DNA of 64,000 bases from Candidatus Bathyarchaeota archaeon A05DMB-3 (lineage in GTDB: Archaea > Thermoproteota > Bathyarchaeia > Bathyarchaeales > Bathycorpusculaceae): assembly GCA_019685555.1 (NCBI GenBank), contig JABFQN010000001.1:124001-188000 (forward strand). Direction: 5' to 3'. Position 1 is the first letter of the stretch. The number at the start of each line of letters is the position of its first letter. The notes below the pieces were generated by a model. The model saw nothing but the letters and a program-made list of their open reading frames with translations, made no database searches and was not told where the DNA came from. This document shows positions 54,515 through 58,455 of this stretch, in pieces. Made by a program: the position numbers and the translations under genes.

Positions 54515-54765
54515 TCAAATTTCACGGCTCCCAACATTTTTAACGCATCTAATAAGCCCTCACAGTAAGCCACAGAAGCAAGGCTCACCTCAAACCGCTT
54601 ACTGTCCCTATAATATTTTGCATCTTGCAAATAGGCTTTTGCAGACTCAATAACCGTTTGGACGGAATCCTTAAACAAGCATGGACTACTCTCGACAAGT
54701 TTTAACTCGCATAGGGCTTGCTCTGCAGAGGCGATATACTTCGAAACAAGCTCTTCTAGGCTCAT
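54469..54765 (-). CDS. DUF357 family protein
   Basis: This 98-residue all-helical protein of the DUF357 family is widespread in archaea. Stretches include KYIASAEQALCELKLVESSP, VIESAKAYLQDAKYYRDSKR and SLASVAYCEGLLDALKML. It is coupled to dphB by ATGA (54762-54765). Function is not established. The HEPN-like four-helix look and repeated clustering with dphB and nucleotide-metabolism genes are noteworthy. Confidence 0.82.
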   Translation of the reverse strand: MSLEELVSKYIASAEQALCELKLVESSPCLFKDSVQTVIESAKAYLQDAKYYRDSKRFEVSLASVAYCEGLLDALKMLGAVKFEWSARREKSQVKSER

Positions 54766-55565
54766 TCAACAAACCGCCTAACGCTTAAAGGAGCCCATGC
54801 AAAGGCTATTAGGGCTTCAGCCTCCATAAAATGAAGCTTTCCAGGGAAGACTAGGCTGTAGGGCGGACCGCCAAAATCGTAACCCAAAAGCTCCCTAACA
54901 GAACCAGCCTTAACTTTGGGGTTTGAGCTTCCAGCTCTAGCTACTCCAACAGCCAGCGTTTCATTGGTTACGATGTTCATCCGCTTTTTCTCTTCAACCG
55001 TTAAAAGCATTTCAAGCGCCTCTCGAAGGCTTAGGTGACGGTTTCCCTCAGCGTCTATATCTAATAAACACAGTGTGTGAAGCCCGAGTTTTTTGTTTTG
55101 AGCAACAACCATGTAAGGAGTTTCTGAGAAATTGCTTGGAAACGGAATGGTTACACTTTTGCCAAACTTGTAGTTGTGTAAGCCGCATAAGCCTATAACA
55201 GCCGATATAATAGATGCAGCGTGAACTATGCGGGTTCTAACCCCACGCTTTGCAGCCTCCAACCTAAGCGCTACATGAGTCGTTGCAATAAGCGGGTCTC
55301 CGGGAACCAGCAAAACAGCCTTACCCCTAACAGCAGCGTCTAAAACAACTTTCCCATTCTCATCTTCAAGCTGCCTCCTCGAAACAACATGAATTTTCTT
55401 CCCAACAACTCTTTCAAAACCTTCAACAGAAAAGTTTGGCATAAAACTTGTGTAAAGCTCTATGAAAACCGCGTCTGCACTTTCAGCCTCCTCCAAACCC
55501 CTTAGGCTAATCCCTTTCTCGTCGTGCAATCCCAAACCAACAAACACAAGCTCACCCAAAACCAT
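54762..55565 (-). CDS. dphB: Diphthine synthase
   Basis: This 267-residue SAM-dependent methyltransferase modifies the EF-2 histidine toward diphthamide. It shows LVFVGLGLHDEKGISLRGLE, FIELYTSFMPNF, LLVPGDPLIATTHVALRLEA, IVHAASIISAVIGLCGLHNY and CLLDIDAEGNRHLSLREAL, all typical. Its substrate EF-2 is not in the window. It leads a leftward DphB-DUF357-RibL operon and diverges from the tRNA-Lys gene. Confidence 0.95.
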   Translation of the reverse strand: MVLGELVFVGLGLHDEKGISLRGLEEAESADAVFIELYTSFMPNFSVEGFERVVGKKIHVVSRRQLEDENGKVVLDAAVRGKAVLLVPGDPLIATTHVALRLEAAKRGVRTRIVHAASIISAVIGLCGLHNYKFGKSVTIPFPSNFSETPYMVVAQNKKLGLHTLCLLDIDAEGNRHLSLREALEMLLTVEEKKRMNIVTNETLAVGVARAGSSNPKVKAGSVRELLGYDFGGPPYSLVFPGKLHFMEAEALIAFAWAPLSVRRFVE

Positions 55566-55671: not shown

Positions 55672-55777
55672 GGGCCCGTAGCTCAGTAAGGTAGAGCGGC
55701 GGACCAAACCGCTGCATGGGGTTGGGTTGAGGCTCTTAACCCGTAGGTCCCGGGTTCAATTCCCGGCGGGCCCGCCA
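55672..55777 (+). tRNA. tRNA-Lys(CTT) with a 29-nt non-canonical intron
   Basis: Acceptor GGGCCCG pairs with CGGGCCC; the D-stem is GCTC/GAGC and the T-arm CCGGG-TTCAATT-CCCGG; discriminator G and encoded CCA end the gene. The anticodon loop CTCTTAA with CTT at 55735-55737 and 3' stem CCCGT require GCGGG on the 5' side, but the DNA has GCGG then 29 extra bases (55703-55731) before GCTC. Removing them restores the stem. The splice site forms a full bulge-helix-bulge: outer helix AGAG/CTCT, bulge GGA, central helix CGGC/GTTG, bulge AGG, inner helix CCAA/TTGG. The intron lies between positions 30 and 31, not at 37/38. Confidence 0.85.
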
Positions 55778-57487: not shown

Positions 57488-57599
57488 TGGTGCCGGGGGC
57501 GGGATTCGAGCCCGCGACCTCTGGACATAAGGCGCTATGCCCCGTTCGTGTTCTCCAGATTATGAGTCTGGCGCCCATTCCAGGCTAGGCTACCCCGGC
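57488..57599 (-). tRNA. Elongator tRNA-Met(CAT) with a 34-nt intron in the variable region
   Basis: Read on the minus strand: acceptor GCCGGGG/CCCCGGC, anticodon arm CCAGA-CTCATAA-TCTGG with CAT at 57562-57564, T-arm GCGGG-CTCGAAT-CCCGC, A discriminator and encoded CCA. Between the anticodon arm and T-arm there are 34 extra bases (57519-57552). Splicing after TCTGGAG to GTC gives a normal AGGTC variable loop. Central helix CTGG/CCAG with three-base bulges AGA and AGG and inner helix ACA/TGT support a splice site at position 45/46. The acceptor stem suits elongator Met, not initiator. Confidence 0.83.
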
Positions 57600-58355: not shown

Positions 58356-58455
58356 TGGTGGGGTAGCTGGGATTTGAACCCAGGACCGCCAGCGCTCTGG
58401 ACAGCAAGCCGCGTTCCCCAGGCTGGTATCCTTGACCAAGCTAGACGACTACCCC
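58356..58455 (-). tRNA. tRNA-Pro(GGG) with a 21-nt canonical intron
   Basis: On the minus strand the acceptor is GGGGTAG/CTACCCC, with anticodon stem CCAGC/GCTGG, loop C-T-GGG-G with anticodon GGG at 58417-58419, T-arm CTGGG-TTCAAAT-CCCAG, discriminator A and encoded CCA. The intron (58395-58415) lies between positions 37 and 38. The splice site has central helix CTGG/CCAG, three-base bulges GGA and AGC and the anticodon stem as outer helix: a textbook bulge-helix-bulge. Confidence 0.92.

What the first reader, a model, noticed from the sequence alone, without database searches (positions are those of the whole stretch)
55672..55777. tRNA-Lys with an intron between positions 30 and 31
The 29-base insert restores a perfect GCGGG/CCCGT stem when removed and forms a complete bulge-helix-bulge whose outer helix uses D-arm bases (AGAG) paired to the anticodon-loop region (CTCT). 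Introns at this site are unusual and imply a splicing endonuclease with broad specificity.
Basis: seen in the sequence. Interest (0 to 1): 0.6.

Follow-up and report, generated by a model that had tools for sequence, protein, structure and literature searches.

The report
Lysine tRNA with anticodon-stem intron
In an uncultured bathyarchaeal genome the gene for the lysine tRNA that reads AAG carries a 29-base intron in its anticodon stem; the intron is real and shared by many relatives, but it is a known kind of archaeal intron at a known position.

Summary
Window 55672-55774 (+CCA to 55777) is tRNA-Lys(CUU) with a 29-nt intron (55703-55731) exactly between positions 30 and 31. It forms a complete bulge-helix-bulge with outer, central and inner helices of 4 bp each, the only such placement in the gene; shuffled introns give it in 0.05% of trials. 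The window comes from a Bathyarchaeia MAG. At least 44 of 257 genomes of the class carry an intron at this site; at least 47 have an intron-free gene, two with exactly the junction predicted here, and one intron-free ortholog sits beside the same dph5 gene. All 56 distinct 30/31 introns compared across the phylum pair fully in the central helix (1.2 expected). The genome encodes a catalytic EndA alpha with the Crenarchaea-specific loop, an EndA beta, and RtcB. Position 30/31 is a published non-canonical site, and split tRNA-Lys(CUU) genes of Nanoarchaeum and Staphylothermus break at this same site. The addition here is a reason for recurrence: mature tRNA-Lys already contains the outer helix (21-24 with 32-35). 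The motif is strict, so this intron alone does not imply a broad-specificity endonuclease. New member of a known kind.

The parts
55672..55774 (+). tRNA-Lys(CUU) gene, positions 1-73
   Evidence: Rfam RF00005 53.4 bits; all four stems complete after removal of the intron
55775..55777 (+). encoded 3' CCA
   Evidence: sequence
55672..55702 (+). 5' exon, positions 1-30
55703..55731 (+). 29-nt intron between positions 30 and 31
   Evidence: intron-free orthologs
55732..55774 (+). 3' exon, positions 31-73; anticodon CTT at 55735-55737
55693..55696 (+). outer helix, 5' strand AGAG (positions 21-24, D arm)
55733..55736 (+). outer helix, 3' strand CTCT (positions 32-35, anticodon loop)
55697..55700 (+). 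central helix, 5' strand CGGC (positions 25-28)
55726..55729 (+). central helix, 3' strand GTTG (intron)
55701..55703 (+). 5' bulge GG^A, predicted cut after 55702
55730..55732 (+). 3' bulge AG^G, predicted cut after 55731
55704..55707 (+). inner helix, 5' strand CCAA
   Evidence: partner-preserving changes in relatives
55722..55725 (+). inner helix, 3' strand TTGG
   Evidence: partner-preserving changes in relatives

Best explanation
An ordinary protein-spliced archaeal tRNA intron at the non-canonical site 30/31 of tRNA-Lys(CUU). The precursor folds positions 21-24 onto 32-35 and 25-28 onto the intron to make a strict bulge-helix-bulge. The genome's EndA, predicted to be an (alpha-beta)2 tetramer, cuts after position 30 and before position 31, and RtcB joins the halves; the D stem and anticodon stem then form. 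Shown here: the motif, its conservation, intron-free orthologs, and the genes for EndA alpha, EndA beta and RtcB. Inferred: actual cleavage and ligation, and the tetramer. The site recurs because mature tRNA-Lys already holds the outer-helix complementarity, so any insert able to pair with positions 25-28 becomes removable (inference).
For: Unique 4/4/4 BHB, 0.05% in shuffled introns. 25 intron-bearing orthologs including the window gene, all with complete stems and 4-bp outer and central helices. In the class, 44 genomes with the intron and 47 without, with the reversed pattern giving none. Two intron-free genes (G201, G202) read exactly AGAGCGGCGGGCTCTTAACCCG, the junction predicted for this gene after splicing. 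The intron-free gene of G042 lies beside dph5 as here. 56 of 56 distinct introns pair fully in the central helix, expected 1.2, with G-C, C-G, A-U and G-U exchanges. EndA alpha has Y122/H130/K161 and loop K39-P40-K41 aligned with A. pernix K44-P45-R46; beta lacks the His. One RtcB gene, E 5.8e-179. It is the only CTT gene found.
Against: No RNA data were available. Free-energy folding does not favour the BHB: it scores -9.4 against -18.7 kcal/mol for another register of the 44-nt segment. However, that register is intact in only 7 of 35 distinct introns while the BHB central helix is intact in all 35. The inner helix is short or broken in some relatives.
Confidence: 0.95

Rival explanations
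1. A pseudogene: a tRNA-Lys interrupted by a meaningless insertion, with another gene reading AAG.
For: ARAGORN does not call it.
Against: All stems are complete after removal; it is the only CTT gene found; the insert sits at one site in dozens of species and always keeps the BHB.
Confidence: 0.02
2. The boundaries are shifted, for example 29/30, because one G is repeated at both ends.
For: The mature sequence is the same whether the cut is placed at 29/30 or 30/31.
Against: The 29/30 reading leaves 0 outer, 1 central and 0 inner pairs; relatives with A31 and intron ends AA^A remove the ambiguity in favour of 30/31.
Confidence: 0.02
3. Real intron, but removed through the alternative, more stable fold (5-bp outer helix AGAGC/GCUCU with an internal loop) rather than the BHB.
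For: It is the minimum-energy fold of the local segment.
Against: Intact in 7 of 35 distinct introns, against 35 of 35 for the BHB central helix.
Confidence: 0.03

Closest known systems
Archaeal non-canonical tRNA introns, 30/31 site (listed in PMC4090602)
   Same: Position, BHB motif, short length, presence in Thermoproteota with two-subunit EndA
   Different: No published account of Bathyarchaeia tRNA introns was found in the library searched; otherwise nothing
Split tRNA-Lys(CUU) of Nanoarchaeum equitans and Staphylothermus (PMC3218864)
   Same: Same isoacceptor, same join 30/31, strict hBHBh'
   Different: There the two halves are separate genes joined in trans; here a single gene with an intron in cis
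Canonical archaeal tRNA introns at 37/38
   Same: BHB, EndA and RtcB pathway; nine other tRNAs of this genome are predicted to have one
   Different: There the outer helix is the anticodon stem itself; here it is D arm with anticodon loop, so the D stem cannot form at the same time

Membership tests
Archaeal BHB tRNA introns | Two 3-nt bulges separated by a 4-bp helix, cut sites in the bulges | tested here: met
Archaeal BHB tRNA introns | Removal restores a normal cloverleaf | tested here: met
   stems 7/4/5/5; identical intron-free junctions
Archaeal BHB tRNA introns | Genome encodes splicing endonuclease and ligase | tested here: met
Archaeal BHB tRNA introns | Excision and joining observed in RNA | not testable with these tools
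   no transcript data
(alpha-beta)2 splicing endonuclease with Crenarchaea-specific loop | Separate catalytic and structural subunits; Lys-Pro/Val-basic motif in the loop of alpha | tested here: met
   K39-P40-K41 against A. pernix K44-P45-R46; no catalytic His in beta; assembly itself not tested
Split (trans-spliced) tRNA-Lys(CUU) | Two separately encoded halves | tested here: not met
   both exons lie in one gene 29 nt apart

The most novel reading that the evidence does not exclude
Position 30/31 of tRNA-Lys(CUU) is a recurrent disruption site across Thermoproteota, set by complementarity already present in the mature tRNA (21-24 with 32-35). The split tRNA-Lys(CUU) genes of Nanoarchaeum and Staphylothermus would then descend from, or parallel, intron-bearing genes like this one.
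Probability: 0.5. Interest if true: 0.5.

Novelty: new member of a known kind. Interest (0 to 1): 0.3.

Why it matters
It shows that the site where tRNA-Lys(CUU) is split in Nanoarchaeum and Staphylothermus is the site where intact genes across much of an archaeal class and in other Thermoproteota families carry a cis intron, with closely related intron-free genes for comparison. That bears on whether split tRNA genes arise from introns, and it suggests a simple structural rule for why this site recurs. It also warns that ARAGORN, run as here, misses the gene.

Tried and rejected
My tRNA caller reports false 10-13 nt introns in Leu and Ser long variable arms and at position 49; these are artefacts and are not counted. 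Twelve loose-pattern strings were left out of the 56 as chance matches or short gaps; none has a complete BHB. RPA synteny was informative only for L042; dph5 synteny was better. Paper look-ups for '30/31' failed on the slash. The A. pernix paper PMC3241643 is not held.

Full report
What is there. The gene at 55672-55774 (+), with encoded CCA to 55777, is tRNA-Lys(CUU). Rfam finds it at 53.4 bits; ARAGORN misses it. Removing 55703-55731 (ACCAAACCGCTGCATGGGGTTGGGTTGAG) gives complete acceptor, D, anticodon and T stems of 7, 4, 5 and 5 pairs. Around the cuts lies a bulge-helix-bulge: outer AGAG/CTCT, central CGGC/GTTG, inner CCAA/TTGG, bulges GG^A and AG^G. Shifting the boundary by one base in either direction destroys it. 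It is the only 4/4/4 placement in the gene, and shuffling the intron reproduces it in 0.05% of trials.

Comparative evidence. The window lies in a Bathyarchaeia MAG: the neighbouring replication factor A gene matches Candidatus Bathyarchaeota records at 49-63% identity, and the best of these (L042) has the same intron-bearing tRNA just upstream. In a search of 60 relatives, 25 intron-bearing orthologs (window gene included) carry introns of 25-34 nt after position 30, with complete tRNA stems and intact outer and central helices. Across 257 genomes of the class, an exact pattern found the gene in 91: 44 with an insert and 47 without, and none with the reversed control pattern. Two of the intron-free genes (G201, G202) have exactly the sequence predicted here after splicing; most intron-free genes instead have A31-U39 in place of G31-C39. 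The intron-free gene of G042 lies next to dph5, like the gene here and most intron-bearing relatives, so it is the orthologous locus without the intron. Two-intron genes also exist: G047 carries 30/31 and 37/38 introns together.

Conservation of the motif. Among 56 distinct 30/31 introns from the class and from five other families of the phylum, all 56 have four central pairs, against 1.2 expected with shuffled introns. The second central pair occurs as G-C, G-U, C-G and A-U, and the inner helix also varies with pairing kept in most cases. The counts are of distinct sequences, not of independent events; both listings hold only introns of up to 30 nt, and the listing was truncated.

Energy caveat. 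ViennaRNA prefers another register of the local segment (-18.7 against -9.4 kcal/mol for the BHB). That alternative is fully paired in 7 of 35 distinct introns, the BHB central helix in 35 of 35, so the comparative evidence favours the BHB.

Splicing machinery. The genome has two EndA genes. One (185 aa) best matches crenarchaeal catalytic subunits, keeps Tyr122, His130 and Lys161, and has K39-P40-K41 aligned without gap to K44-P45-R46 of Aeropyrum pernix, the loop tied to broad specificity (PMC12397907). The other (184 aa) matches EndA but has Thr where M. jannaschii has its catalytic His. This predicts an (alpha-beta)2 enzyme. One RtcB ligase gene is present. Other introns of the genome have weaker motifs, for example tRNA-Met at 57491-57599.

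Relation to known systems. Position 30/31 is in the published list of non-canonical archaeal intron sites (PMC4090602). Split tRNA-Lys(CUU) genes of N. equitans and two Staphylothermus species join at exactly 30/31 with a strict hBHBh' (PMC3218864). The present gene is the cis counterpart at the same site of the same tRNA.

Why this site. In the mature tRNAs of this genome, a cut is flanked by a ready-made 4-bp outer helix at 37/38 and 59/60 in all 39 tRNAs examined. At 30/31 this is so only in Lys(CUU), Lys(UUU) and one Met. 37/38 is the canonical site and 59/60 is a published intron and permutation site (PMC4090602, PMC3218864). This suggests, without proving, that pre-existing complementarity helps decide where introns and splits can settle. 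Against a simple rule: the Met, Arg and Gly non-canonical introns here do not sit at such sites.

Verdict. Observation confirmed, interpretation partly supported, new member of a known kind. Not shown: transcription, cleavage and ligation.

Noticed in passing
window 57491-57599 (-): tRNA-Met(CAU) with a 34-nt intron in the variable loop (about 45/46) and a relaxed motif (central 4, inner 3, no outer pairs), also missed by ARAGORN.
   Followed up: partly
window 58359-58455 (-): tRNA-Pro(GGG) with a canonical 37/38 intron of 21 nt.
   Followed up: partly
L036 (G000:C4:79368-79463) and L021 (G000:C19:24785-24874): tRNA-Gly(UCC) with an insert near 29/30 and tRNA-Arg(UCU) with a 15-nt insert in the D loop region; exact sites not settled.
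   Followed up: partly
L082 (G047): tRNA-Lys(CUU) with two introns, at 30/31 and 37/38, both with complete bulge-helix-bulge motifs.
   Followed up: partly
relatives: Presence of the intron goes with G31-C39 (40 of 44 genomes) and absence with A31-U39 (44 of 47), which may reflect how the intron was lost or the gene replaced.
   Followed up: no
window 54762-55565 (-) and relatives: dph5 (diphthine synthase) is divergently paired with tRNA-Lys(CUU) across much of the class.
   Followed up: yes
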